From contig NZ_FOSS01000003.1 of the NCBI RefSeq assembly GCF_900114355.1, positions 183,215 to 247,214 on the forward strand: DNA of 64,000 nucleotides. Reading direction: 5' to 3'. The notes below the pieces were generated by a model, which was not told the origin of the DNA, did no database searches, and saw only the letters and a program-made list of their open reading frames with translations. Every line of letters begins with the position of its first letter. The first letter of the stretch is position 1. This document shows, one piece after another, positions 21,033 through 54,920 of the stretch. Source of the DNA: Lysobacter sp. cf310. GTDB taxonomy: Bacteria; Pseudomonadota; Gammaproteobacteria; Xanthomonadales; Xanthomonadaceae. Position numbers and translations under genes: made by a program.

Positions 21033-22871
21033 ATGGAAGACCTGCTCCCGTACTACGAGCGCGAACTGGCGTTCCTGCGTCGCCACGGCAAGGAATTCGC
21101 CGAGCGCTATCCCAAGATCGCCGGCCGCCTGCTGATCTCCGGCGACGGCAGCCAGGATCCGCACGTCGAGCGCCTGGTCGAGTCCTTCGCGCTGCTGACG
21201 GCGCGAGTGTCGAAGAAGATCGAGGACGACTATCCCGAATTCACCGACGCCTTGCTGGAAGTGCTGTATCCGCATTACCTGCGGCCGTTCCCGTCCTGTT
21301 CGATCGTGCGCTTCGACCTCGACAGCCAGTTGGGCAAGCTGAGCCAGGCCGTCAAGGTGGCGCGCGGCACCCTGTTGAATTCCCAGCCGGTGCGCGGCGT
21401 CAGCTGCAAGTTCCGCACCAGCTACGACGTGACGCTGGCGCCGATCCGGGTCAAGGCAGCCCGATTCAACCCCATTGCCGCCGCGCCCATGGCCACGACC
21501 CTGCCGCCCGGCAGCGGCGCGCAGATATCGCTCACCTTCGAGCTGCTGGGCACCGATGCCCCCAAGGCGATGCAGGGCATCGACCGGCTGCGCCTATTCA
21601 CCGATGGCGAGCCCTCATTCGTCGCCACCCTGCGCGACGCACTGGCGTTGAACGTGCGCGCGGCCTATCTGGAACAGGAAGACAGCGGCCGCTGGCACAA
21701 ACTGGCCGCCGTGCCCCTGCAACAGGCCGGGTTCGCCGACGACGAGGCGCTCATCGATTACCCGGACCGTTCGCATCCGGCCTATCGCTTGCTCACCGAA
21801 GTGTTCGCTTATCCGGAGAAGTTCGGCTTCTTCGACCTGGATCTGCGTGCGCTGCGCCAGGCCGGCGCCGGCAATCTGTTCACCGTGCACCTCATCCTCA
21901 AGGCCGAGGCCGCCGACTCGCCGGTCTCGCGGGCGCTGGAGGCCTTGGGACCGGACAGCGTGCTGACCGGTTGCACGCCGGTCACCAACCTGTTCGCGCA
22001 GCAGGGCGAGCCGATCCGCGTCACCCATCGCACGGCCACCTATCCTGTGGTCGCCGATTCGCGCCGGGCCTTCGCCTATGAGGTGCATTCGATCGACTCG
22101 GTGGCGCGCGTGCGGCAGACGCCCCAGGGCGAGCACATCACGGAGTTCCGGCCGTTCTATTCGCTGCATCACGGCGAAACGCCCAGCCAGACCGGGCAGT
22201 ACTGGCTGGCGCATCGCGACGAGCATGTCGCCCGCAGCAGTCCCGGTTACGAAACCGAGATGTCCTTCGTCGATCTCGATTTCAATCCGACCTTGCCGCA
22301 AACCGATGTGGTCAGCCTCAAGCTTACCTGCAGCAACCGCGAGCTGCCGACGCAGCTGCCGCACGGCCCCCAAAGCGCGCCGCTGATCCAGGACGGCGGC
22401 GGCATGGCCCGCGCCATCACCTTGCTGCGCAAGCCCAGCCGTCCGCTACGGTTCGAGCGCGGCCGCGCCGCCCACTGGCGCCTGATCTCGCACCTTTCGC
22501 TCAATCACCTTTCGCTGACCGGCAGCGGCCTGCCCGCGTTCAAGGAAATGCTGCGCCTGTACGACATGGCGCGCTCGGCGGTGTCCAATCGTCAGATCGA
22601 CGGCATCGTCGGCATCCGTCACGAACCCGCCACCGCCTGGCTGCCCGGCAAGCACTTCACCAGCGTGGTGCGCGGCCTGCACATCAAGATCACCATCGAC
22701 GAACACAGCTTCGTCGGCGCCGGCATATCCGCGTTCGCCGCCGTGCTCGACCGATTCTTCGGCCTGTACGTGCATGCGAACAGCTTCACCCAACTCACGC
22801 TGCTGTCCGCCCATAGCGGCGAGGTCATCGTCCAATGCCCCCCACGAAGCGGCGAATCGATCCTGGTGTAG
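21033..22871 (+). CDS. tssF: T6SS baseplate protein TssF
   Basis: At 612 aa this is a standard TssF, opening with the family signature MEDLLPYYERELAFLRRHGKEFAERYP, quoted here only in part: LLPYYERELAFLRR at residues 3-16. HVERLVESFALLTARV and the DALLEVLYPHYLRPFPS segment follow, and the C-terminal half has FTQLTLLSAHSGEV. TssF with TssG and TssE makes the baseplate wedge. Its 3' end overlaps tssG by 37 bases in another frame, a sign of translational coupling. Confidence 0.96.
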   Translation: MEDLLPYYERELAFLRRHGKEFAERYPKIAGRLLISGDGSQDPHVERLVESFALLTARVSKKIEDDYPEFTDALLEVLYPHYLRPFPSCSIVRFDLDSQLGKLSQAVKVARGTLLNSQPVRGVSCKFRTSYDVTLAPIRVKAARFNPIAAAPMATTLPPGSGAQISLTFELLGTDAPKAMQGIDRLRLFTDGEPSFVATLRDALALNVRAAYLEQEDSGRWHKLAAVPLQQAGFADDEALIDYPDRSHPAYRLLTEVFAYPEKFGFFDLDLRALRQAGAGNLFTVHLILKAEAADSPVSRALEALGPDSVLTGCTPVTNLFAQQGEPIRVTHRTATYPVVADSRRAFAYEVHSIDSVARVRQTPQGEHITEFRPFYSLHHGETPSQTGQYWLAHRDEHVARSSPGYETEMSFVDLDFNPTLPQTDVVSLKLTCSNRELPTQLPHGPQSAPLIQDGGGMARAITLLRKPSRPLRFERGRAAHWRLISHLSLNHLSLTGSGLPAFKEMLRLYDMARSAVSNRQIDGIVGIRHEPATAWLPGKHFTSVVRGLHIKITIDEHSFVGAGISAFAAVLDRFFGLYVHANSFTQLTLLSAHSGEVIVQCPPRSGESILV

Positions 22872-23926
22872 CGCAACAGCTGCTCGCGGCGCCGCAACGC
22901 TTCGGATTCTTCCAGGCGTTGCGCATCCTGGAGTCGCTGTTCGCCAGGCAGGGCATCAAGCGCGGCGAAATGGTCGCGCGCAAGGTGCGCTTCAAGAACA
23001 CGCTCGCGCTGGGATTCCCGGCCAGCGAGATCGAAGGCGCGGTGGCCTACGGCAACGACGGCGAAGTGCTCGATCACGAGACGTCCATCGAGAACGCGGT
23101 CAGCACGCAGCAACTGGCCGAGGTGCATATCACCCCGGCGTTCAGCGGCCTGCTAGGCGGGCAGGGCGCACTGCCGCTGCATTACACCGAACGGCTCGCC
23201 GAGCGCGAGACCGTGCATCGCGATCGCGCCGCGCGTGCGTTCCTGGACCTGTTCACCAATCGCGCGCTCGCGCTGCACTACGACGCCTGGAAGAAGTACC
23301 GCGTCCCCCTGCAGCACGAACTGGAACGCGACGAACGCTTCCTGCCCATGGTGCTGTCCTTGGTCGGCCTCGGCCAGCCGGCGCTGCGCGATCGCATGGC
23401 CGACGGCGGCGCCGGCGAAGTGTTCGACCAGGCCATCGCTCACTATGCAGGCGCCGTCGGCCAGCACCCCACCTCCGCGGCCGCCCTGCAGCGCATCCTG
23501 CGCGACTATTTCCAGGTCCCGCTGCGCATCGAGCAGTTCGTCGGCGCCTGGTATTCGGTACCGGAAACGCAGCGGACCCGATTGGGCGCCAGCAACGCCA
23601 CCTTGGGTTCCACCGCGCTGGCCGGCGACCGGGTCTGGCAGCGCGATCTGCGTATGCGGGTGTGGATCGGTCCGCTGGATCGCGACCGCTTCGACGATTT
23701 TCTGCCCGGCGGCAAGGCGGCGCTAGGCCTGGCCAAGTGGCTCAGCCTGCTGACCGGTGCCTGCTTCGAGTACGAGGTCCGTCTGATCCTGAAGGCCGAA
23801 CACATCACCGGCGTGCGCATGAGCCCCGAGGCCGGCGCGCGCCTGGGCTGGGACAGCTACGTCTGTTCCAAGGCGGCGCAGGCGCCGCGCTCCGACACCA
23901 GCTACGACATTCGTACCTTGCAGTAG
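22835..23926 (+). CDS. tssG: T6SS baseplate protein TssG
   Basis: This 363-aa protein begins MPPTKRRIDPGVAQQLLAAP and shows FGFFQALRILESLF, the GLLGGQGALPLHYTE motif and LDLFTNRALALHYDAWKKY, all diagnostic for TssG. It starts inside the tssF end (37-base overlap). The last codons form the first unit of a 16-bp tandem repeat that continues past the stop. Confidence 0.96.
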   Translation: MPPTKRRIDPGVAQQLLAAPQRFGFFQALRILESLFARQGIKRGEMVARKVRFKNTLALGFPASEIEGAVAYGNDGEVLDHETSIENAVSTQQLAEVHITPAFSGLLGGQGALPLHYTERLAERETVHRDRAARAFLDLFTNRALALHYDAWKKYRVPLQHELERDERFLPMVLSLVGLGQPALRDRMADGGAGEVFDQAIAHYAGAVGQHPTSAAALQRILRDYFQVPLRIEQFVGAWYSVPETQRTRLGASNATLGSTALAGDRVWQRDLRMRVWIGPLDRDRFDDFLPGGKAALGLAKWLSLLTGACFEYEVRLILKAEHITGVRMSPEAGARLGWDSYVCSKAAQAPRSDTSYDIRTLQ

Positions 23927-23961
23927 CCGTACCCTGCAGTAGCCGCACCCCGCAGTAGCCG
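23914..23961 (+). repeat. Three-unit 16-bp tandem repeat at the tssG stop codon
   Basis: TACCTTGCAGTAGCCG, TACCCTGCAGTAGCCG and CACCCCGCAGTAGCCG follow one another without gaps. The first unit contains the tssG stop TAG; the others repeat the same CAGTAG. It looks like a local slippage duplication of the tssG 3' end. Confidence 0.85.
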
Positions 23962-24003
23962 CTCCATTCCAGCCCCACCGACTCAACGCACGGAACGCCC
24001 AGC

Positions 24004-26805
24004 ATGAGCATCAATCTCAAGACCCTGATCGGGAAGCTCAACGACACCAGTCGCCTCGCCGTCGAACGCGCGGCGAATCTCTGCGTGCAGCGCGGCCACT
24101 ACGAGGTGGACCTGGAGCACCTGTTTCTGGCCTTGCTGGAACAGCCTCGCAGCGATTTCGCGTTGATCGCCCAGCGCAGCGACATCGGCCTGGACTCGCT
24201 GCAACGCGACCTGGACCGGGAGATCGGCCGCTTCAAGAACGGCAACACGCGTACGCCGGTGTTTTCCCCGCACCTGCCCACGCTGTTCGAGCACGCATGG
24301 CTGCTGGCCTCGCTGGACGCGCAGACCACGCGCATCCGCAGCGGCCATCTGCTGCTGGCCTTGCTGACCGAACCGGGGCTGTCGCAGTTGGCCTACCGCG
24401 GCTCGTCGCAGTTCGTGAAGCTCAAGAAGGACGAACTCAAGCACGACTTCGCCACGCTGACCAAGGGTTCGCAGGAAGCCGGGGAGGCGGTCGGCTTCGC
24501 GGACGCCGGCGCAGGGCAGGGCAGTAGCGACGCCGAGACGGCCGACCAGGTCGCGCGTGGCGGCTTGGGCAAGACCCCGGCCCTGGACCAGTTCACCACC
24601 AACCTGACCGCGCGTGCGCGCGACGGCAAGATCGACCCCGTGGTGGGGCGCGATCCCGAAATCCGCCAGGTCATCGACATTCTGATGCGGCGGCGCCAGA
24701 ACAACCCCATCCTCACCGGCGAGGCCGGCGTCGGCAAAACCGCGGTCGTGGAGGGCTTGGCGCTGCGCATCGCCGCCAACGACGTGCCGCGCGTGCTGCA
24801 GGGCGTGGAACTGCACACGCTGGACATGGGCTTGCTGCAAGCCGGCGCCAGCGTCAAGGGCGAGTTCGAGAATCGCCTGAAGAACGTCATCGACGAGGTG
24901 AAGAAGAGCGCGCACCCCATCATCCTGTTCATCGACGAGGCCCACACTATGATCGGCGCCGGCGGACAGGCCGGCCAGAACGACGCGGCCAACCTGTTGA
25001 AGCCCGCGCTGGCGCGCGGCGAATTGCGCACCGTCGCCGCCACCACCTGGAGCGAGTACAAGAAGTACTTCGAGAAGGACGCCGCACTGGCGCGCCGCTT
25101 CCAGGTCGTCAAGGTGGAAGAACCCAGCGAGGCCCTGTGCGCGGCGATGCTGCGCGGCATGGTCCCGTTGATGGAGCGGCACTTCGGCATCCGCGTGCTC
25201 GATGAAGCCATCACCGAAGCCGTGCGCCTGTCGCATCGCTACATCAGCGGCCGTCAGCTGCCGGACAAGGCGATCAGCGTGCTGGACACCGCCTGCGCGA
25301 AAGTCGCGCTGGGACAAAGCGCGACGCCGGCGATCATCGAAGAGACCCGCAAGCACCTGGATCGCATCCAGGCCGAACTGGCCACGCTCAAGCGCGAAAC
25401 CGCCAGCGGCTGGCAGCACGGCGAGCGCACGGCGGAACTGCTGGCGCAACAGGCGCAGGCGCAAGCGAGCCTGGCCGACAACGAAACGCGGCTGGTCAAG
25501 GAGCTCGAACTGGCCGAACGCATCCAGGCCCTGCGCACCGAACTGGAAGCGGCCGCCGGCGACGACACGCCTCACGCGGCGGTCGAGCCTCCGTCGGTAG
25601 TGGACGAAGACGACGCCATCGGCGATGGCGATGTCGCCGTGGCCGCGCCCACCAAAAAGAAGGCCGCCAAGGGCAAGAAAGCCGAACCCGCGCGCCAGGC
25701 CGCGTCGCCCGAGCCCAGGCACGCGCGTCTGCAAGCGCTCATCGGCGAACTGCGCGCCTTGCAGGGCGAAGCCCCGATGGTGCCGCTGCAAGTGGACGGC
25801 CACGTCGTGGCCGACATCGTCAGCGCCTGGACCGGCGTGCCGCTGGGGCGCATGGTCAAGAACGAAGTGGCGACCGTACGCAACCTGTACGCGCTGCTGG
25901 GCGAACGCGTCATCGGCCAGGATCACGCCCTCGACGCCGTCGCCCAACGCGTGCGAACCGCCACGGCCAAACTCGAAGACCCGAACAAGCCGCGCGGCGT
26001 CTTCATGTTCGTCGGCCCCTCCGGCGTGGGCAAGACCGAAACCGCGCTGGCCTTGGCGGACATCCTCTACGGCGGCGAGCGCAAGCTGATCACCATCAAC
26101 ATGAGCGAGTACCAGGAAGCGCACAGCGTGTCCGGCCTGAAGGGCTCGCCCCCGGGGTACGTGGGCTACGGCGAGGGCGGGGTGCTGACCGAAGCGGTGC
26201 GTCGCCAGCCCTATAGCGTGGTGCTGCTGGACGAGGTCGAGAAGGCGCATCCGGATGTACTGGAAATGTTCTTCCAGGTGTTCGACAAGGGCAGGATGGA
26301 CGACGCCGAAGGGCGAGAGATCGACTTCCGCAACACCCTGATCATCCTGACCTCCAACGTGGGCTCGCCGCAGATCATGCAGGCGTGCTTGAACAAGCCG
26401 CAGGAAGAAGTGCCCCAGGCCGACGCCCTGGCCGACGCCTTGCGCCCGATCCTGATGAAGTCGTTCAAGCCGGCCTTCCTCGGCCGTTTGAAGGTGGTGC
26501 CTTACTATCCGATCAGCGATGAAGTCCTGGTCCAGATCATCGACCTGAAACTGCAACGCATCCGCGACCGCGTCGCCAGCAACCACAAGGCCACGTTCCA
26601 GTGGGACGAATCGCTGGTCGATGCCGTGCTGCAGCGCTGCACCGAGGTCGACTCCGGCGCACGCAATGTCGATCACATCCTCAACGGCACCTTGCTACCG
26701 GAAATCGCCGAGAGCGTGCTGTCGCGCATGGTCGACGGCGGCAAGATCGAGGCGATCACGGTCGGGGCGGACGAGGCTGGTGGGTTTGTGTATACGATCC
26801 GGTAG
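24004..26805 (+). CDS. clpV: T6SS AAA+ unfoldase ClpV (TssH)
   Basis: The 933-aa ATPase recycles contracted TssBC sheath. The N-domain (about 1-160) carries the ClpV-type HYEVDLEHLFLALLE motif. The first AAA+ module has GEAGVGKT and FIDEAHTMIGAGG, and the second has GPSGVGKTETALAL, LLDEVEKAHPDV and the sensor region. The middle domain is interrupted by a charged, Lys/Ala-rich stretch (about 525-570, including KKKAAKGKKAEP), longer than usual. It ends the rightward T6SS arm, 77 bases after tssG. Confidence 0.96.
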   Translation: MSINLKTLIGKLNDTSRLAVERAANLCVQRGHYEVDLEHLFLALLEQPRSDFALIAQRSDIGLDSLQRDLDREIGRFKNGNTRTPVFSPHLPTLFEHAWLLASLDAQTTRIRSGHLLLALLTEPGLSQLAYRGSSQFVKLKKDELKHDFATLTKGSQEAGEAVGFADAGAGQGSSDAETADQVARGGLGKTPALDQFTTNLTARARDGKIDPVVGRDPEIRQVIDILMRRRQNNPILTGEAGVGKTAVVEGLALRIAANDVPRVLQGVELHTLDMGLLQAGASVKGEFENRLKNVIDEVKKSAHPIILFIDEAHTMIGAGGQAGQNDAANLLKPALARGELRTVAATTWSEYKKYFEKDAALARRFQVVKVEEPSEALCAAMLRGMVPLMERHFGIRVLDEAITEAVRLSHRYISGRQLPDKAISVLDTACAKVALGQSATPAIIEETRKHLDRIQAELATLKRETASGWQHGERTAELLAQQAQAQASLADNETRLVKELELAERIQALRTELEAAAGDDTPHAAVEPPSVVDEDDAIGDGDVAVAAPTKKKAAKGKKAEPARQAASPEPRHARLQALIGELRALQGEAPMVPLQVDGHVVADIVSAWTGVPLGRMVKNEVATVRNLYALLGERVIGQDHALDAVAQRVRTATAKLEDPNKPRGVFMFVGPSGVGKTETALALADILYGGERKLITINMSEYQEAHSVSGLKGSPPGYVGYGEGGVLTEAVRRQPYSVVLLDEVEKAHPDVLEMFFQVFDKGRMDDAEGREIDFRNTLIILTSNVGSPQIMQACLNKPQEEVPQADALADALRPILMKSFKPAFLGRLKVVPYYPISDEVLVQIIDLKLQRIRDRVASNHKATFQWDESLVDAVLQRCTEVDSGARNVDHILNGTLLPEIAESVLSRMVDGGKIEAITVGADEAGGFVYTIR

Positions 26806-26976: not shown

Positions 26977-27396
26977 TCATCCCTGCTTGAAGAGGGTTCG
27001 TTGGCCTATCGAGCTATCCTTGCGTGCGGTTGGTCTTGCCAGGCCGGGAATCAGGAAGTCAGCGACGCTCCGACCATACTTCGTCTTCTGGACTAGCCAC
27101 AGCGGCATCCGCCCACGGCCCGACCAGGTGTTGCGCTTGTTCTCGGGGTCGCGGTACTTGGCAGCAACCTTGCTCGCCTTTCGCCGCAATGCACGCTTCT
27201 TACCAACAATCTCAGCCGCTGGCTGATCCCCAAAGAGTTCCTCGATCGTATAACCGTACTCAGCGGCGAGTGCGATGATCTTTCGACGCACCAAGGCAAT
27301 GGGGCGACGACTGGATATCAACTGCCTGCGTTGCTCCGCGGCGATCAGTAGGGACTTCAGCTCCGACAGGCTGAGCTTATCGACATCAATGTTCAT
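26977..27396 (-). CDS. H-NS family nucleoid protein
   Basis: The 139-aa protein has an N-terminal helical oligomerisation region (LSLSELKSLLIAAEQRR, about residues 8-24) and a C-terminal DNA-binding domain with YRDPENKRNTWSGRGRMPLW, the conserved H-NS pattern (core SGRGR hook for AT-rich minor grooves). H-NS proteins silence foreign AT-rich DNA. It is convergent with tssH and stands at the left edge of a lower-GC island, so it may silence that island or the T6SS. The C-terminal 25 residues after the domain are unusual for the family. Confidence 0.88.
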   Translation of the reverse strand: MNIDVDKLSLSELKSLLIAAEQRRQLISSRRPIALVRRKIIALAAEYGYTIEELFGDQPAAEIVGKKRALRRKASKVAAKYRDPENKRNTWSGRGRMPLWLVQKTKYGRSVADFLIPGLARPTARKDSSIGQRTLFKQG

Positions 27397-27850: not shown

Positions 27851-28273
27851 ATGCGAATTGGACTCGCACTACTTCTTTTTGCTGTTATTGGACTGGCCTC
27901 TGCAGAGGCTGTATACAAATGCGTAGGTAAAGGTGGGGCGGTCAACTACCAAAGCCATCCATGCCCAGCCACGCATCAGGTAGCTAAGTCTTGGGATGCG
28001 ACTCCCGAACCCCCGCCTAGCGACGCCGAACTTTGGCGGCGTTATCATCAGCGGAAAAAAGCTGATGCAGATTCCAGATACTTCTCACAGCTAGCCGGAA
28101 CCGCGCGTCGGGGAGGCTCGGCTAGTGTTGTTTACAAGAATACGCCCCATCAGCGCAGCGCGTGCGAAGTGGCTCGCGAAACCCGTGAGTCATTTCTCCT
28201 CAACTCGAACACCGATGTAAGCCACGACGTACGCAGGCGTCTCAATGACGCTGTATTCGACGCCTGCGAGTGA
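27851..28273 (+). CDS. Small secreted DUF4124-like protein (paralogue 1)
   Basis: The 140-aa protein has a signal peptide (about residues 1-18) and a DUF4124-like domain with YKCVGKGGAVNYQSHPC, which keeps two cysteines. A conserved spacer follows (KSWDATPEPPPSDAELWRR, ADSRYFSQLAGT) and the protein ends LNDAVFDACE. Two homologues with the same layout are at 46752 and 54504 on the other strand. This copy has clearly lower GC than those two, like the defence genes after it. A strong ribosome site (GGGGGTGG) precedes the ATG. The SIR2 gene starts 21 bases downstream, so they may be co-transcribed. Function unknown. Confidence 0.8.
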   Translation: MRIGLALLLFAVIGLASAEAVYKCVGKGGAVNYQSHPCPATHQVAKSWDATPEPPPSDAELWRRYHQRKKADADSRYFSQLAGTARRGGSASVVYKNTPHQRSACEVARETRESFLLNSNTDVSHDVRRRLNDAVFDACE

Positions 28274-28294
28274 TCTCTTGAAATGGGGGTTGGC

Positions 28295-29461
28295 ATGACA
28301 ACTACTCCTGACGATCTGCTCGAACAAATAGACCGTCATTTCGAACACGGGAATCAGGCTTGGCTTCTTGGCGCTGGAATCAGCGTTGATGCCGGCCTTC
28401 CGTTAATGTGGCCTCTCACTGCGCGAGTGTGTGATATGGCCAAGGACAAGCCTCACGAAGCGCTTATGAAAGCGCTGCTCGGAGAGCTTCCGGAGACTGC
28501 GCACATCGAGCATGTTCTAAGCCAGCTCGGGGACTACGCCGCTATCGCCAAGCGAATGAAAGACAGCAAAGTCAATGTCTCAGGATCATCGTACACCCTC
28601 GATGACTTGCAAGCCGCTCATGCTGGAATCGCTCAAGACGTAGCTTCAACCATCCGGTGGGGGTACATCCCCGGCAATGACAAAGAAGGGGTTGCAGCGA
28701 CCATAGGCGCCCCTGACAACCCATTGGCAACTGTTGATGGCCACGCTGACTTCGTCCGTGTTCTCTTTGAAAAGCGTCAAGCTGGACTCTGGGAGCGACG
28801 GAAGCCTGTTTACTTTTTCACTACTAACTACGACACACTTCTTGAGGATGCCCTGGCGCTCGGAAGGTACTCATCCTGGGATGGATTTTCTGGTGGTGCG
28901 ATAGCCTTTAGAGATCATGTGTATGGAAAAGCAGCTCGAGTAGAAGGAATGCGAGCTGTAGTAGTAAAGCTGCATGGATCTATTGATTGGGTTCTCGGAA
29001 AAGATGGCGAAGTATGGCGCGTGAGGGAGACTGACAAGTACCCACCTCGCTACGGGCGCGTTCTCATACACCCCCAATCCACAAAATATGTATCGACTCA
29101 AAAGGATCCTTTCGCCGCTCAGTTCGACCTATTTCGAAGAATACTCAACAGCAGCGACGAGCTCGTATTTGCAATTGTCGGCTATAGCTTTGGCGATGAC
29201 CATGTCAATGAAGAAATCGAAAGAGCTTTATCCAGCAAAGACAATAAGACGACGTTAATTGCATTCTGCCGAGAGAACAATTCTTTGCCGCCAGCCCTGG
29301 ACGGCTGGCGAAATTCCTCATGGGGTGATCGCGTCTTTGTACTTACGGAGAAATCCATCTACTGGGGCAGTCAAGGCCCGTTCCATCAAAGGAAAGAAGG
29401 CGAGCACAACTGGTGGTCCTTTAAGGGAATGACTGGATTCATCGAGAATAGGGGTGAGTGA
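28295..29461 (+). CDS. SIR2-family NADase of a SIR2-HerA defence pair
   Basis: I take the ATG at 28295 (388 aa), preceded by GGGGGTTGG, rather than the in-frame ATG four codons upstream. The SIR2 fold is shown by WLLGAGISVDAGLP near the N-terminus (NAD-binding Gly loop), FFTTNYDTLLEDAL (Asn/Asp motif) and VVKLHGSIDW with the catalytic His. FAIVGYSFGDDHVNEEI follows as the last Rossmann strand. Partnered SIR2 proteins deplete NAD on phage infection. The HerA-like gene starts one base after the stop. Pairs of this type are described as SIR2-HerA, also called Nezha. The assignment rests on motifs and gene pairing. Confidence 0.88.
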   Translation: MTTTPDDLLEQIDRHFEHGNQAWLLGAGISVDAGLPLMWPLTARVCDMAKDKPHEALMKALLGELPETAHIEHVLSQLGDYAAIAKRMKDSKVNVSGSSYTLDDLQAAHAGIAQDVASTIRWGYIPGNDKEGVAATIGAPDNPLATVDGHADFVRVLFEKRQAGLWERRKPVYFFTTNYDTLLEDALALGRYSSWDGFSGGAIAFRDHVYGKAARVEGMRAVVVKLHGSIDWVLGKDGEVWRVRETDKYPPRYGRVLIHPQSTKYVSTQKDPFAAQFDLFRRILNSSDELVFAIVGYSFGDDHVNEEIERALSSKDNKTTLIAFCRENNSLPPALDGWRNSSWGDRVFVLTEKSIYWGSQGPFHQRKEGEHNWWSFKGMTGFIENRGE

Positions 29462-29462
29462 T

Positions 29463-31304
29463 ATGGCTAATTTCGACGTTGTTAAAGAGCTGCGTGTCGG
29501 CCATATCGTAGAGGTCTCAGGAACATCGATTCGTGTTGAGCTTGATGGTGACGTAACCGAGCTATCAAGGACTCACGCTGGCCGCGTCTATCCTATCGGC
29601 CAGATGGGAAGCATTGTCAAAGTCCACTTTGGACGCAACATCGTGTTCGGCTTTGTCACGCTGCTTCGAATGCGATCAGAAGAGCTGATTGAGCAAGGCA
29701 AGATCATTCCGCCCGAAGCCGATCAGCGCATAATGGAAATCGAGCTTTTTTCCGAGGGAGTATGGCGAGTTGGCGAAGAGCTCTTGGAGTTCAAGCGCGG
29801 AGTCACCACGTATCCTCTTCCACGGCAGAGCGTCTATCTGCTAACCAGGGGCGAGGCTGACTCACTCTTTACGGCCGCAGAAGGTCTGCGGAGAGATGGA
29901 GACTACGATGCGCTTGTGCCCTTTGGTACCTATGTTGGCGCAGACTCTGCATTGTGCAGAACGAATATCGACAAGATGTTTAGCATGCACTGCGCGATTC
30001 TTGGCTCGACAGGCTCGGGGAAGTCAGGCGCTGTCGCTGCTCTACTTCACAGTATTCTTGACCACAAGCCGCGCGAGAACGCGGAGTGTCATCCAAGGAT
30101 CATAATTATCGATCCACACGCTGAGTACGGCGCCGCATTCAAAGAGCGAGCCGTGGTCTATCGCGCGTACGATCCAGTTGGCCACGAGGCTGCGAACGGA
30201 CAAACGATAAACCTCCCTTACTGGCTAATGTCTGCTGATGAATTTCGTCTTCTTGTGATTGGAAAGACCGAGTTCGAAGCAACCACTCAGCACAACGTGA
30301 TCTACAAGGCGCTCACTCACGCAAGAATGGTTGCTGCTGGCCTCGTAGACCCAGCACCTCGTGCGTACGGTGGAGATGCACCCGCTGACGGACAGGAAGC
30401 GGACGTTCCTAGACCCAAAGCCGGTGTTCAACAGGAGGCGCTTGATTCGTTCGACATGGACAAGCCGCGCCCGTTCTCTCTCGATGAGCTGCTCAGTCAC
30501 ATTTTGTACCTTCAAGCTGCGAGGCTCGACGGTGCAAAGCTGAAGGCAGTTACAGCAACGGATTTCACAAAGAACTTTAAGTCTGTTCTAGACAAGATTG
30601 GCGTGCTGCGTCGCGACCCTCGTATTCGCTTCATGATGAAGGAGTGGGAGGAGGGCAGTCCTGACCTGGCGACTATTCTTGGACAGTTCGTTGGAGAAGC
30701 AGAGCCTAAGAATAGTGATCTGCGGATTCTCGATATCTCGGGCTTGCCAAACGAAGTCGCCGGCCCTTTGACAGCGGCGTTGGCGCGCCTTCTTTTTCGT
30801 TACAAGGTGTACCAAACTGCGGAAGAAAGGCTGCGCGATCCTGTTCTGCTAGTTTGCGAGGAGGCGCATCGGTATGTTCCTGATCGCGGTGAAGCCGAAT
30901 ATGCTGCAGCTCAAGGAGCAATCCGCCGGATCGCTCGTGAGGGAAGGAAGTATGGAATAGGACTGATGCTGGTCAGTCAGCGGCCGGCGGATGTCGAAAG
31001 TACAGTCATCGCCCAATGCGGAACTTGGCTGGTTCTTCGTCTCACGAATCAAGCTGATCAACAGCATGTGTCGCGTTTTCTTCCGGATGGTCTATCCGGC
31101 ATGACGCGTTCGCTGCCAAACTTAGGACAACAAGAAGCGATTTTTGTTGGCGAGGGTGCTGCATTGCCCTCTCGCGTTCGGATTCGCGACTTGCAGAATT
31201 CTCAGCTTCCACAGTCGCATAACGCTCGCTTCGCTGAAGGGTGGGCCGGTCCACGACTAACGATTGAAGAGCTCGGAGCGATTACGCGGCGAATGACTGC
31301 TTAG
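29463..31304 (+). CDS. HerA-like hexameric ATPase of a SIR2-HerA defence pair
   Basis: The ATG at 29463 follows GGGGTGAG at four bases and gives 613 aa; a GTG at 29454 would add three residues. A HAS-barrel region (about 1-150) precedes the FtsK/HerA ATPase. Walker A is GSTGSGKSGAVAALL, followed by IIIDPHAEYG. Walker B is LLVCEEAHRYVPD, then LMLVSQRPADV with sensor residues and a conserved Arg in TWLVLRLTNQADQQHV. HerA rings assemble with SIR2 proteins into a large complex and control its NADase. The gene is lower in GC than its surroundings, a sign of transfer. Confidence 0.9.
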   Translation: MANFDVVKELRVGHIVEVSGTSIRVELDGDVTELSRTHAGRVYPIGQMGSIVKVHFGRNIVFGFVTLLRMRSEELIEQGKIIPPEADQRIMEIELFSEGVWRVGEELLEFKRGVTTYPLPRQSVYLLTRGEADSLFTAAEGLRRDGDYDALVPFGTYVGADSALCRTNIDKMFSMHCAILGSTGSGKSGAVAALLHSILDHKPRENAECHPRIIIIDPHAEYGAAFKERAVVYRAYDPVGHEAANGQTINLPYWLMSADEFRLLVIGKTEFEATTQHNVIYKALTHARMVAAGLVDPAPRAYGGDAPADGQEADVPRPKAGVQQEALDSFDMDKPRPFSLDELLSHILYLQAARLDGAKLKAVTATDFTKNFKSVLDKIGVLRRDPRIRFMMKEWEEGSPDLATILGQFVGEAEPKNSDLRILDISGLPNEVAGPLTAALARLLFRYKVYQTAEERLRDPVLLVCEEAHRYVPDRGEAEYAAAQGAIRRIAREGRKYGIGLMLVSQRPADVESTVIAQCGTWLVLRLTNQADQQHVSRFLPDGLSGMTRSLPNLGQQEAIFVGEGAALPSRVRIRDLQNSQLPQSHNARFAEGWAGPRLTIEELGAITRRMTA

Positions 31305-31382: not shown

Positions 31383-31562
31383 TCACGCGCCCTTTGAGTG
31401 CTTCTTAACACCTTCGATGAATGAGACGTCCATGGCTGCAAAGCTGGGTGGAGAATCGCTTGGCAGTCGCCAGGGGGCGATGTGCTTCCCATCCTGGGAA
31501 ACAAGATGGCGGCCTCTCAGCCGCCATCCGGTCCATTCACCAAGCAGGTCTTGATCAGACAT
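31383..31562 (-). CDS. Small phage-like protein, possible DUF3653 family
   Basis: The frame starting MSDQDLLGEWTGWRLRGRHL has a GGAGCGG ribosome site before its ATG and encodes 59 aa. The centre, GWRLRGRHLVSQDGKHIAP, resembles the short conserved region of DUF3653 proteins known from filamentous phages of xanthomonads. It ends about 100 bases from the dif-like site, the kind of place where such phages integrate. It may be a remnant of one. The same frame is open upstream as far as 31700 but that would run into the dif site. Confidence 0.45.
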   Translation of the reverse strand: MSDQDLLGEWTGWRLRGRHLVSQDGKHIAPWRLPSDSPPSFAAMDVSFIEGVKKHSKGA

Positions 31563-31663: not shown

Positions 31664-31691
31664 ATTTAACATAATATGCATTATGCGAAGT
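31664..31691. other. dif: dif-like XerCD recombination site
   Basis: ATTTAACATAA (31664-31674) is identical to the XerD-binding arm of the E. coli dif site read on the opposite strand. The six central bases are TATGCA, against TATACA in E. coli. TTATGCGAAGT (31681-31691) matches the XerC arm TTATGCGCACC in its inner seven bases and differs outside. This is either the chromosomal dif site, which would put the window at the replication terminus, or an attachment site left by a Xer-using filamentous phage. The comparison is from memory of the E. coli site. Confidence 0.75.
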
Positions 31692-31943
31692 ATTGCGCAA
31701 GGTTCACGCGTGGCTTCGCGCGGCGTTTAGGAAGGCTCTGGCGCGATGGACCGCCGCATGGAGGCTTCAAGATGCGCCCGCCCTGTTGGCCTGAAGGCAA
31801 ACCCTGTCCGAACACGTGCGCCGGTAATCTTCACCGGCGCTCGGATCGCCAGCCGACGACCGACGCACGAGCCCATCATCCTAGCGACGACGCCATTTCA
31901 GCCATAAGATCGCTAAGAAGGAACGCTACTGCTCAGGGGGCGC

Positions 31944-32453
31944 ATGAACATCAAGGGTGGGAGTGATCCGTACCGTTTCGTCACCTTCGTTGGAGTGCGG
32001 AACGATTCTCATATGGAATATGGGAAACGAGACAGCGTGGCTTTTAGCCGCGATTTGCGTCGCCTTGCCTATGAACTCGGCGCAATGGGCATCGTAGAGG
32101 AAGCGCCACCCGACTTTGTCGCCTTCGTGAAGCCCGCCAAGACGTCGCCTGAGCTTGTCGCACAGGAACTAGCCCTAAGGTATCTCCAGGTGGAGCTGAC
32201 TGAGGCGGAACGAAATGAACTAGGCATCGTTATTGGCTTCCAGCAGGGCCAGACCGAAGAGTGGGTCACCGAACAGAAGACCAAGAGCTTGCACGTTCGC
32301 GAGGCTGGATGGCTGGAGCGCCTCCTCGAAGCGGATGTTTTTCCTGCTATTTTGATCTGCGATGCAAGCCACATTGAGACGTTTTCCGACAAGCTCGTGG
32401 CAAGCGGTGTCGAGGTCACGGTCTCCCACACGGACTGGTCTCCGAGCCCATAG
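31944..32453 (+). CDS. Orphan 169-aa protein at the right end of the island
   Basis: I do not recognise this protein. It is acidic, has no signal peptide or membrane segment, and seems an alpha/beta fold: YRFVTFVGVRND at the start, a central charged helix region and AILICDASHIETFSDKLVASG near the end, like a Rossmann-type strand-helix. AGGGGGC precedes the ATG at 31944. It lies 640 bases after the HerA gene, past the dif-like site, and reads in the same direction. It may be an independent cargo gene of the island. Confidence 0.65.
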   Translation: MNIKGGSDPYRFVTFVGVRNDSHMEYGKRDSVAFSRDLRRLAYELGAMGIVEEAPPDFVAFVKPAKTSPELVAQELALRYLQVELTEAERNELGIVIGFQQGQTEEWVTEQKTKSLHVREAGWLERLLEADVFPAILICDASHIETFSDKLVASGVEVTVSHTDWSPSP

Positions 32454-32583
32454 GAGAAACAGCAACGGGTTCCTGGGGCTTCAAAGCCAAACAGGCCCTA
32501 GCTCGGGACCACCGCCGTACCGATCCCGCACTCAGATCCTGGCCAGGGTCTGCGGCACTGCGTGGCGTCATCGATGGCGACCA

Positions 32584-34284
32584 TCAGGTGTGCCACACCT
32601 CGATCCTCAGCGACAGCTTCCGCGCGGTCGGCTCCGCTGGTCCGACGGTCGCTTTTAACAGGCCGTTGAGTTCCCGATTCAAGAACTGCGTGACCGCGGC
32701 TGGCACCTCGGGCGCGACGGCCGCCGAGGTGCTGGGTAGATAGGCGTAGTCCAGTGCCAGATCGTAGCTCGACAATATTTTCCATATCGGATCGGGCAAC
32801 CAGGACCCATTCGGATGCTGCAAATCCGGAGGGACGTACTGGCCCATTGGCTGCGGCCGCTGCAAGCGCAGGCGCAGGCTGATCGGGTCGCCGAGGTTGA
32901 GGATGCGGATGGCGAGGATGTTGTCCCGCCGGGTGTTCGCGGCGAGCGCGCTGTTGGGGCCGACGGCTTGTTCCAGGCTGATGGGTGCACTGCCCTCCCC
33001 TAATTCGCCGTCCAGCCGCAGCACGGATTGGGTGACGTGCGTGGAATGGGCACGCCTGCGCATCCGGGCCTCGGCTTGGACCAGGTAGCTGCCCAGCGTG
33101 TCCAGCGAAATCCAGATGCCGTCGTCGAAGGACTCCTGTACGTCCGCGCCCGGCGCGCTTTGCGTTTGCGTGCTCGCCGGTTCCAGGATGTAGCGATTGC
33201 GAAGGTCTAGTCTCTCGGCGTCGAATCCTTCGATGGTCATGCCCAGGATTTCCGACTGTCCGAACTCGATCGCGTGCAGCGCGACACGCAGCTGGCCGAA
33301 GATCTCCGAGTACAGCATCAGCGAGTCGCGCAAGCGGCGATTGAGGCCCAGGCCGGAGTTGGCCTCGAACTGCACCACCTTGCGGCGCCACTTCTCGTCG
33401 CGTATCGCATTGCGATTCTTCGCCAAGTCGTGGTCGTAGACGGCGATCTTCTTGGCGGCCGAGATCTGGGCGATCTGGCTGTCGATCGCGGACTTCTCGT
33501 TCTGCAGACGCAGGGTTTCGTTGCGCTGGTTGGCGGTCTCGAACTTGACGCTGCGCTTGGCATCGGACGACATCGCCGCCCAGACGATGTCGAAGACGGA
33601 GCCGGAGAACAGGGCGCTGTAGGGCGCATTCGACACCTTGACCAATTCCGGCGCGCCATTGCCGGGCGTCGAGGTGGAATGGATCAGCGGCCAATAGGAC
33701 TGAATCAGCGCCCGGTCGACGCGATGCTCGGACGTGTGCCCGGGCGCGTCCGCGCCATGGCTGGTCACGGCCTCGGTCCAGTTCGCGATCACCGTCGCGA
33801 AGGCGGTTTGCTCCTTGCGCTTGGCGGCCAGCAAGCCTTCTTGCAGCTGCACTTCGTCGGCAAGGCGGGCCAGCTCGGCGTCCCGCAGCTTCTTGGTCTC
33901 CTCGAACTCGTAGGATTCCTGCGCGTAGTTGAACAGGTCGAGCTGCAGCGCCTCGATGCGCCGGCGCAGCTCCAGGCAATCCGACAGCAGCGAGCGGGCG
34001 ACGCCGATGTTCTCGAGCACGAGAAACGGATTCAGGCCCGGCTCAAGCAAGCTATCCAGCACGGTGATCCGGATCTTGCCGCCTTGCTGCACGATCCCCG
34101 ACAAGGGAATGTCCTTGGCCTTGTCCCGGATCAGCAACCGCAGCTGAAGGTCCTTGTCGCGCTTCAGGAAGTCCAGCAGTTCGTCGGAATCGGTCGGAAT
34201 AGGATCCGGGTCGAACCGCAATCGCTGGATCAGCTCGTCGGGCGATTGCACCTTGGAAAACAGCGAATCCGAAGACGACGACAT
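32584..34284 (-). CDS. 566-aa coiled-coil-rich protein of an unknown two-gene operon
   Basis: The ATG at 34284 follows AGGGGGT at good spacing. No signal peptide or membrane helix is seen. An N-terminal globular part (LLIRDKAKDIPLSG, then a strand-rich stretch) leads to long helices (about 110-190, rich in Glu/Leu/Arg), a middle segment with WPLIHSTSTPGNGAPEL, another coiled coil (about 270-320, KSAIDSQIAQISAAKK) and a beta-rich C-terminal half (about 330-566). The alternation of coiled coil and beta domain recalls pore-forming or injection-type proteins, but no signature decides this. It lies 20 bases after the 238-aa gene and belongs to one operon with it. Family unknown to me. Confidence 0.7.
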   Translation of the reverse strand: MSSSSDSLFSKVQSPDELIQRLRFDPDPIPTDSDELLDFLKRDKDLQLRLLIRDKAKDIPLSGIVQQGGKIRITVLDSLLEPGLNPFLVLENIGVARSLLSDCLELRRRIEALQLDLFNYAQESYEFEETKKLRDAELARLADEVQLQEGLLAAKRKEQTAFATVIANWTEAVTSHGADAPGHTSEHRVDRALIQSYWPLIHSTSTPGNGAPELVKVSNAPYSALFSGSVFDIVWAAMSSDAKRSVKFETANQRNETLRLQNEKSAIDSQIAQISAAKKIAVYDHDLAKNRNAIRDEKWRRKVVQFEANSGLGLNRRLRDSLMLYSEIFGQLRVALHAIEFGQSEILGMTIEGFDAERLDLRNRYILEPASTQTQSAPGADVQESFDDGIWISLDTLGSYLVQAEARMRRRAHSTHVTQSVLRLDGELGEGSAPISLEQAVGPNSALAANTRRDNILAIRILNLGDPISLRLRLQRPQPMGQYVPPDLQHPNGSWLPDPIWKILSSYDLALDYAYLPSTSAAVAPEVPAAVTQFLNRELNGLLKATVGPAEPTARKLSLRIEVWHT

Positions 34285-46751: not shown

Positions 46752-47168
46752 CTACTTGCAGGCGTCGTACACACTGTCGTTCAAGGCCCTGCGCGCGTCG
46801 TAGCCTACGTCGTCGTTGTGCTGACGCAGAATGGCCTCGCGTCGGGCCTTGGCCGCCGCGCAGGCGTCGGTTGCGGCCGGCGACGGTGCGTAGGCGGCGC
46901 TGGCCCGCGAACCGTCGGTGCCGGCCAGGCGCGATAAGTACCGCGAATCCGCCTCGCCTTGTTTACGCCGATAGTGGCGCCGCCACAACTCGTCGTTGCT
47001 GGGCGGCGGCGCCGGGGTCGCGTCCCAGGACTTCACCGCCTTCTGCGCAGGCGCGCAGGGCTCGCTTTGATAACTGACCGCCCCGCCCTTGCCCACGCAC
47101 TTGTGCACGCTTTGGCCCTGGGCCGTGCCGGCGAACGCCAGCAACAGGCATGCGAGTCCGATTCGCAT
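46752..47168 (-). CDS. Small secreted DUF4124-like protein (paralogue 2)
   Basis: The 138-aa protein has a signal peptide (about 1-18) and the HKCVGKGGAVSYQSEPC motif. It shares KSWDATPAPPPSNDELWRR, ADSRYLSRLAGT and the end LNDSVYDACK with the copy at 27851 and less closely with that at 54504. Four cysteines are conserved at the ends and in the middle. Its GC content is as high as the genes around it. Function unknown; probably periplasmic. Confidence 0.82.
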   Translation of the reverse strand: MRIGLACLLLAFAGTAQGQSVHKCVGKGGAVSYQSEPCAPAQKAVKSWDATPAPPPSNDELWRRHYRRKQGEADSRYLSRLAGTDGSRASAAYAPSPAATDACAAAKARREAILRQHNDDVGYDARRALNDSVYDACK

Positions 47169-54503: not shown

Positions 54504-54920
54504 CTATTTGCAGGCCTCGAAGACCGCGTCGTTGAGCGCGCTGACCAGCGCGTAGTCGCGGTCCATGCCGACGGCGGCGAGTTTGCGTTCGCGGCGTTCG
54601 CGCGCGATGTCGCAGTCGCGGCCGTCGCCGAGCCGGATCGCATAGGCGCGCGCGCCGCCGGGACGGTCGGTGCCGGCCAGGCGCGAGAGATAGCGCGAGT
54701 CGGCCTGGCCGCGCTGCTCGGCCTGCTGGCGACGGCCCAGCTCGGCCGCATCGGGCGGCGGCTGCGGCGTGGCCTCCCAGACGCGGGCGGTGGCGGCCGC
54801 CGCGCAGGCTTCGGATTGGTAGCTGACGGCGCCGGAGCGGGCGACGCATTTGTAGAGGCTGGCGGCGTCGGCCACGGGCGGCAGCAGGAATAGCAACGAG
54901 TAGACGGCGTGCAGGGGCAT
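54504..54920 (-). CDS. Small secreted DUF4124-like protein (paralogue 3)
   Basis: The 138-aa protein has a signal peptide (about 1-19) and YKCVARSGAVSYQSEAC. ADSRYLSRLAGT and the end LNDAVFEACK match the copies at 27851 and 46752, while the spacer is more diverged (VWEATPQPPPDAAELGRR). It keeps the cysteines at matching places. Function unknown. Confidence 0.8.
   Translation of the reverse strand: MPLHAVYSLLFLLPPVADAASLYKCVARSGAVSYQSEACAAAATARVWEATPQPPPDAAELGRRQQAEQRGQADSRYLSRLAGTDRPGGARAYAIRLGDGRDCDIARERRERKLAAVGMDRDYALVSALNDAVFEACK

What the first reader, a model, noticed from the sequence alone, without database searches (positions are those of the whole stretch)
31664..31691. dif-like XerCD site beside a phage-like gene inside the island
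The XerD arm is identical to E. coli dif; the XerC arm differs only in its outer bases. A DUF3653-like gene of the type found in filamentous phages lies 102 bases away. Either the window is at the chromosome terminus or a Xer-using phage has been here.
Basis: partly seen in the sequence, partly recalled or inferred. Interest (0 to 1): 0.6.

Follow-up and report, generated by a model that had tools for sequence, protein, structure and literature searches.

The report
Chromosome dif site between phage fossils
This is the bacterium's single chromosome-unlinking site (dif), and both of its sides carry broken ends of filamentous phages that once used it to integrate; relatives suggest that the phages fall into two mirror-image classes, one for each side of dif.

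Summary
The site is real and is the chromosome's own dif. It is the only dif-like sequence in the 4.73-Mb assembly, and FtsK-orienting motifs (GGGNAGGG) change strand exactly there (left 51:2, right 6:96). Congeners carry one orthologous site each. So "chromosome terminus" is right. "A Xer-using phage has been here" is also right, on both sides. The DUF3653-like ORF on the XerD side is a truncated relative of VC1465/XafT, the Xer activation factor of phage TLCphi. There 156 bp match (89%) the end of an intact 9.2-kb filamentous prophage at dif in a congener. No intact filamentous phage was found in this genome. Across the family and in IMG/VR, genes of this family beside dif point away from it and come in two lineages: proteins with an N-terminal Cys motif on the XerC side, short proteins on the XerD side. 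Prophage far ends are mirror-image half-sites. The XerC-side kind matches published TLCphi; I found no description of the XerD-side kind in the open papers searched. The neighbouring SIR2-HerA pair is an antiphage system; two congeners carry other systems beside dif. That short XafT-like proteins act on XerC is a guess.

The parts
31664..31691 (-). chromosomal dif, 28 bp: XerC arm ACTTCGCATAA (31691-31681), central region TGCATA (31680-31675), XerD arm TTATGTTAAAT (31674-31664)
   Evidence: sole match in assembly; 0 in shuffles; KOPS strand switch at this point
31383..31562 (-). XerD-side remnant of a short (type B) XafT/VC1465-like gene: the first 33 residues (31562-31464) are homologous, the remainder is not
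   Evidence: PF12375 17.5 bits; NF040522 E 0.0086; own type-B profile 33.4 bits
31772..31840 (+). XerC-side remnant of a long (type A) XafT/VC1465-like gene: only the N-terminus MRPPCWPEGKPCPNTCAGNLHRR remains in frame
   Evidence: type-A profile 30.6 bits over positions 2-26; phrog_25084 E 0.0025
31666..31821 (+). dif plus the dif-proximal end of a filamentous prophage of the type intact in congener G012
   Evidence: 89% identity over 156 bp to L225:10002-10157; prophage anatomy
28283..29461 (+). SIR2-domain protein of an antiphage SIR2-HerA pair
   Evidence: PADLOC SIR2 E 3.5e-148; Pfam SIR2_2
29454..31304 (+). HerA-type helicase of the same pair; ends 78 bp from the XerD-side remnant ORF
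   Evidence: PADLOC HerA E 4.4e-137; NF042944 E 3.6e-73
27851..28273 (+). DUF4124 gene; relatives lie beside XafT-like genes in prophages of congeners, but paralogues also occur elsewhere in the window
   Evidence: PF13511; tblastn
26977..27396 (-). H-NS-like gene; conserved neighbour on the XerD side of dif in congener G013
   Evidence: PF00816; 83% DNA identity to L226:9199-9826

Best explanation
31664-31691 is the chromosomal dif, at which XerC and XerD, with FtsK translocating along converging KOPS, resolve chromosome dimers. Filamentous phages of this family integrate beside dif rather than destroying it: the crossover joins a phage half-site to a dif half-site, rebuilds a complete dif at one end and leaves a one-armed half-site at the other. 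Phages whose attP keeps the XerC arm plus central region end up on the XerC side; phages whose attP keeps the XerD arm plus central region end up on the XerD side. Each carries, about 70-130 bp from dif and pointing away, a small gene of the VC1465/XafT (DUF3653) family. In this genome one phage of each class was once present. Both are now deleted except for the first 23 and 33 codons of those genes. Shown: single dif, KOPS switch, remnants on both sides, intact counterparts in relatives, mirror-image half-sites. Inferred: that an XerD-side phage supplied the present XerD arm, and that the XafT-like proteins activate Xer recombination here as XafT does in Vibrio cholerae.
For: Single site in the assembly. 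KOPS left 51:2, right 6:96, with no other breakpoint fitting better than dif. XerC and XerD genes present. 16 of 19 other congeners have exactly one site within 3 mismatches, and a 17th (G008) one beyond that limit. Remnants A and B. 89% DNA match of the XerC flank to a G012 prophage end; that prophage has Zot, Rep_trans, coat and DUF3693 genes and a far half-site ACTTCGCATAA TGCATA GTGGGTGCTGT. In G008 dif has filamentous-phage genes on both sides, with a C-half-site at -7169 and a D-half-site at +6914. In G008 and G179 (L325) the far D-half-site carries an XerD arm that resembles congeners' arms, while dif carries another, as arm exchange predicts. The window's XerD arm TGTTAAAT differs from the TGTAAA- form of G010, G012, G013, G014.
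Against: Neither remnant has its far half-site in the window, so the two integrations are read from one end only. The remnants are short, and B's Pfam and NCBIfam scores are below curated cut-offs. My first viral search required the arm TGTTAAAT, so the frequency of that arm in phages is not estimated without bias. No recombination was measured.
Confidence: 0.87

Rival explanations
1. The XafT-like genes beside dif are host genes, domesticated to help dimer resolution, which happened to decay in this genome; phages picked them up from hosts.
For: Intact copies stand alone beside a single dif, without recognised phage core genes within 10 kb, in several genomes (e.g. G003, G011, G009, G018). 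Spacing and orientation are constant.
Against: Presence is sporadic: about 19 (XerC side) and 12 (XerD side) of 81 loci. Genes adjoin prophages with half-sites in G012, G008, G098, G162, G174, G179 and are common in filamentous phage contigs. In this genome both are truncated.
Confidence: 0.1
2. The site is a leftover phage attachment site and the true dif lies elsewhere.
For: The XerD arm is unlike that of the nearest congeners and the flanks are phage-derived.
Against: No other site within 3 mismatches in a genome rated 100% complete; KOPS polarity switches here.
Confidence: 0.02
3. A live Xer-integrated element carrying SIR2-HerA still sits here and can excise.
For: SIR2-HerA lies between the XafT-like remnant and a DUF4124 gene, the place where accessory genes sit in the G012 prophage; filamentous prophages of Vibrio carry defence genes in an accessory locus (PMC11630473).
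Against: One dif only, no half-site in 26.8-33.3 kb, no Zot in the genome, truncated XafT-like genes.
Confidence: 0.04

Closest known systems
dif of Xanthomonas campestris and other Proteobacteria (Carnoy and Roten 2009, PMC2731167)
   Same: 28-bp XerC/XerD site near the terminus; X. campestris dif reads ATTTCGCATAATGTATATTATGTCAGGA (printed there on the other strand), with the same XerC-arm core and central-region pattern.
   Different: The outer XerD arm here is TGTTAAAT, and both flanks are phage remnants.
TLCphi satellite phage and its activation factor XafT (VC1465) of Vibrio cholerae (PMC4246890; PMC9765430 for XafT)
   Same: attP with an intact XerC arm and central region but a degenerate XerD arm, as in the XerC-side prophages here; a gene of the VC1465 family is present.
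   Different: The XerC-side elements here carry Zot and coat genes, whereas TLCphi is a satellite. The XerD-side class has the opposite half-site and a shorter protein.
Xanthomonas filamentous phages XacF1, Cf1c, phiLf (PMC4076744, PMC5666396)
   Same: Integrate at dif through host XerC/D, 15-bp core TATACATTATGCGAA (central region plus XerC arm); the core lies in the HTH regulator gene, as in G012.
   Different: The XafT-like protein of phiLf belongs mainly to another family (phrog_2188), and the window holds only fragments.
SIR2-HerA antiphage systems (PADLOC)
   Same: Adjacent SIR2 and HerA genes with strong model matches.
   Different: The SIR2 protein has only distant relatives (best about 40% identity, partial) in 396 other genomes of the family.

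Membership tests
chromosomal dif site | XerC arm, 6-bp centre and XerD arm of Proteobacterial dif | tested here: met
chromosomal dif site | single copy per chromosome, conserved in relatives | tested here: met
   1 in own genome; one each in 16 of 19 other congeners at 3 mismatches
chromosomal dif site | located where KOPS polarity converges | tested here: met
   51:2 left, 6:96 right; dif fits as well as any breakpoint
chromosomal dif site | GC-skew inversion at the site | tested here: inconclusive
   skew is weak and noisy on the 735-kb contig
chromosomal dif site | supports XerCD/FtsK dimer resolution | not testable with these tools
   XerC and XerD genes are present; no assay
VC1465/XafT family (DUF3653), window ORFs | sequence match over the curated model cut-off | tested here: not met
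   fragment B 16.1 bits against 70 (NF040522) and 17.5 against 22.4 (PF12375); fragment A no hit; called remnants of homologues, not members
VC1465/XafT family (DUF3653), intact relatives | match to NF040522 / PF12375 | tested here: inconclusive
   type A E 2e-7 but 31 bits against cut-off 70; several exceed the PF12375 cut-off
VC1465/XafT family (DUF3653) | activates XerD | not testable with these tools
   no assay; known for XafT (PMC9765430 citing the original work)
TLCphi-type Xer-exploiting element (XerC-side class) | attP with XerC arm and centre, degenerate XerD arm | tested here: met
   far half-sites in L225, L231, L233, L280, L332; not retained in the window itself
intact filamentous prophage in the window | Zot, replication and coat genes and a far half-site | tested here: not met
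   no Zot in genome; no half-site
SIR2-HerA defence system | adjacent SIR2 and HerA genes over model | tested here: met

The most novel reading that the evidence does not exclude
Xer-exploiting phages of this family form two mirror-image classes. The XerC-side class (attP = XerC arm + centre) carries a Cys-motif XafT that activates XerD, as TLCphi does. The XerD-side class (attP = XerD arm + centre) carries a short XafT relative that instead recruits or activates XerC at the missing XerC arm. Both can occupy one dif without destroying it.
Probability: 0.35. Interest if true: 0.72.

Novelty: new variant of a known kind. Interest (0 to 1): 0.5.

Why it matters
It shows how a chromosome's essential unlinking site stays intact while phages pile up on both sides, and why outer dif arms vary between close relatives: each integration swaps an arm. 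The side rule makes a testable prediction about which recombinase each small activation factor contacts. It may also explain how antiphage systems come to lie directly beside dif.

Tried and rejected
GC skew as a terminus test: too weak. A far half-site in the window marking the end of the XerD-side element: none (best 12 of 17 bases, background level). Linking SIR2-HerA to phages by homologues: no close relative of the SIR2 protein in IMG/VR, GTDB contigs or the family. DUF4124 as a phage marker: rejected as sufficient, since paralogues lie at 46.8 and 54.5 kb in the window. The original XafT paper is not in the library (one recalled DOI was not held), so the XafT link rests on NCBIfam naming and citing papers. 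phiLf and fSU1 were not used to argue the side rule because their records differ by an inverted 15-bp att core.

Full report
WHAT IS THERE. The minus strand at 31691-31664 reads ACTTCGCATAA TGCATA TTATGTTAAAT. A dif pattern with up to 3 mismatches finds this site alone in the window (0 in 100 shuffles) and alone in the 4.73-Mb, 12-contig assembly. In the genus, 16 of 19 other genomes have exactly one such site. A 17th, G008, has one that only a looser pattern finds. In the family 189 of 249 genomes match. On the 735-kb contig that holds the window, GGGNAGGG motifs lie 51:2 on the plus strand left of the site and 6:96 right of it; no breakpoint explains the motifs better than the site itself. 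GC skew is too noisy to add anything. XerD and XerC genes are present on contig C6. I conclude that this is the chromosomal dif.

THE GENE BESIDE IT. The DUF3653-like ORF is real but broken. Part of its first 33 residues matches PF12375 at 17.5 bits, below the cut-off. NCBIfam's model for the "VC1465 family Xer recombination activation factor" matches it weakly (E 0.0086) and matches an intact relative at E 2e-7, still under that model's strict cut-off. VC1465 is, to my knowledge, XafT of TLCphi; PMC9765430 describes XafT as a XerD-activating factor of a Vibrio cholerae element. A second, truncated relative lies on the other side of dif: MRPPCWPEGKPCPNTCAGNLHRR from 31772.

WHERE THE FRAGMENTS COME FROM. 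In congener G012 (L225), window 31666-31821 matches dif and its XerC flank at 89% over 156 bp. There the flank is the end of a 9.2-kb filamentous prophage. It has Zot, Rep_trans and DUF3693 domains and coat-type genes by position and by matches to phiLf, and ends in a half-site ACTTCGCATAA TGCATA GTGGGTGCTGT: XerC arm and centre without an XerD arm. That is the attP design reported for TLCphi (PMC4246890), and the att core inside the HTH gene matches XacF1 (PMC5666396, PMC4076744). The genome of the window holds no Zot gene and no half-site near dif, so only a fossil end remains.

THE TWO-SIDED RULE. I examined 81 dif loci: the window, congeners and the family. XafT-like genes next to dif point away from it on both sides. 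About 19 loci have one on the XerC side and 12 on the XerD side. Five XerC-side prophages end in C-half-sites. Two XerD-side ones (G008, G179) end in D-half-sites with XerD arm and centre but no XerC arm. G008 has both at once. An N-terminal motif PPCWxxGxxCPNxCA occurs in 19 of 25 XerC-side proteins and 0 of 18 XerD-side proteins. In IMG/VR, after removal of duplicates, all 25 proteins scored as having the motif and with a recognisable att site upstream lie on the XerC side. Of 36 XerD-side proteins, three (L379, L391, L392) have a Cys-containing N-terminus by eye and are exceptions; most of the seven XerC-side ones scored without the motif are frameshifted or variant long forms. On a tree of 87 proteins the side label needs 3 changes against 29 for shuffled labels; support is limited because few columns are available. 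Two cautions: phiLf and fSU1 have the att core inverted relative to each other, so I did not use them for this rule, and the IMG/VR loci were fetched with one query alignment of each class.

ARM SWAPPING. In G008 the far D-half-site carries TTATGTTATCA, like congeners' dif arms, while dif carries TTATGTTCTCG; in G179 the pair is TTATGTAAACG and TTATGTCAACC. This is what a crossover in the centre predicts. The window's TTATGTTAAAT differs from the TTATGTAAA- arm of G010, G012, G013 and G014. This is inference.

NEIGHBOURS. 28283-31304 is a SIR2-HerA antiphage pair, foreign in composition (GC 0.51-0.54 against 0.67 for clpV). In G013, which shares the flanking H-NS gene (83%) and the sequence at 32497-33293 (93%), the XerC side of dif instead carries Olokun genes and a candidate system, PDC-S53. 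In G015 a Mokosh MkoA gene begins about 10 bp from the dif core. A pooled PADLOC scan of ORFs within 5 kb of dif in 13 congeners found Mokosh and kinase-type hits; matched ORFs 5-10 kb away gave one mad3 hit. This is a small, unreplicated comparison. Filamentous prophages at dif in Vibrio are reported to carry defence genes in an accessory locus (PMC11630473), so delivery of SIR2-HerA by a XerD-side phage is plausible but not shown.

VERDICT. The dif itself is ordinary. The two-sided, mirror-image arrangement of XafT-like genes and half-sites is the part worth following; my literature search covered open-access papers only, so its novelty is not established.

Noticed in passing
28283-31304: SIR2-HerA antiphage gene pair ending 78 bp from the XerD-side remnant ORF; its SIR2 protein has only distant relatives in the family.
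   Followed up: partly
L226:10509-18857 (G013), L227:4967-9995 (G015): Other antiphage systems directly beside dif in congeners: Olokun plus PDC-S53, and Mokosh. dif may be a defence-gene hot spot in this genus.
   Followed up: partly
window 46755-47168 (-), 54507-54896 (-): Two paralogues of the DUF4124 gene at 27851-28273 (56% and 45% identity); reason for the cluster unknown.
   Followed up: no
L236 and L237: phiLf and fSU1 records differ by an inversion of the 15-bp att core (TATACATTATGCGAA against TTCGCATAATGTATA).
   Followed up: no
L030: Viral contig with filamentous-phage genes on both sides of one dif; its long and short XafT-like proteins share nearly the same C-terminal residues, suggesting recombination between the classes.
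   Followed up: no
21033-26805: Type VI secretion genes tssF, tssG, tssH end about 5 kb from dif; the same block lies about 0.8 kb from dif in G014.
   Followed up: partly
31944-32453: 169-residue ORF between the XerC-side remnant and conserved sequence, no match in Pfam or PADLOC.
   Followed up: no
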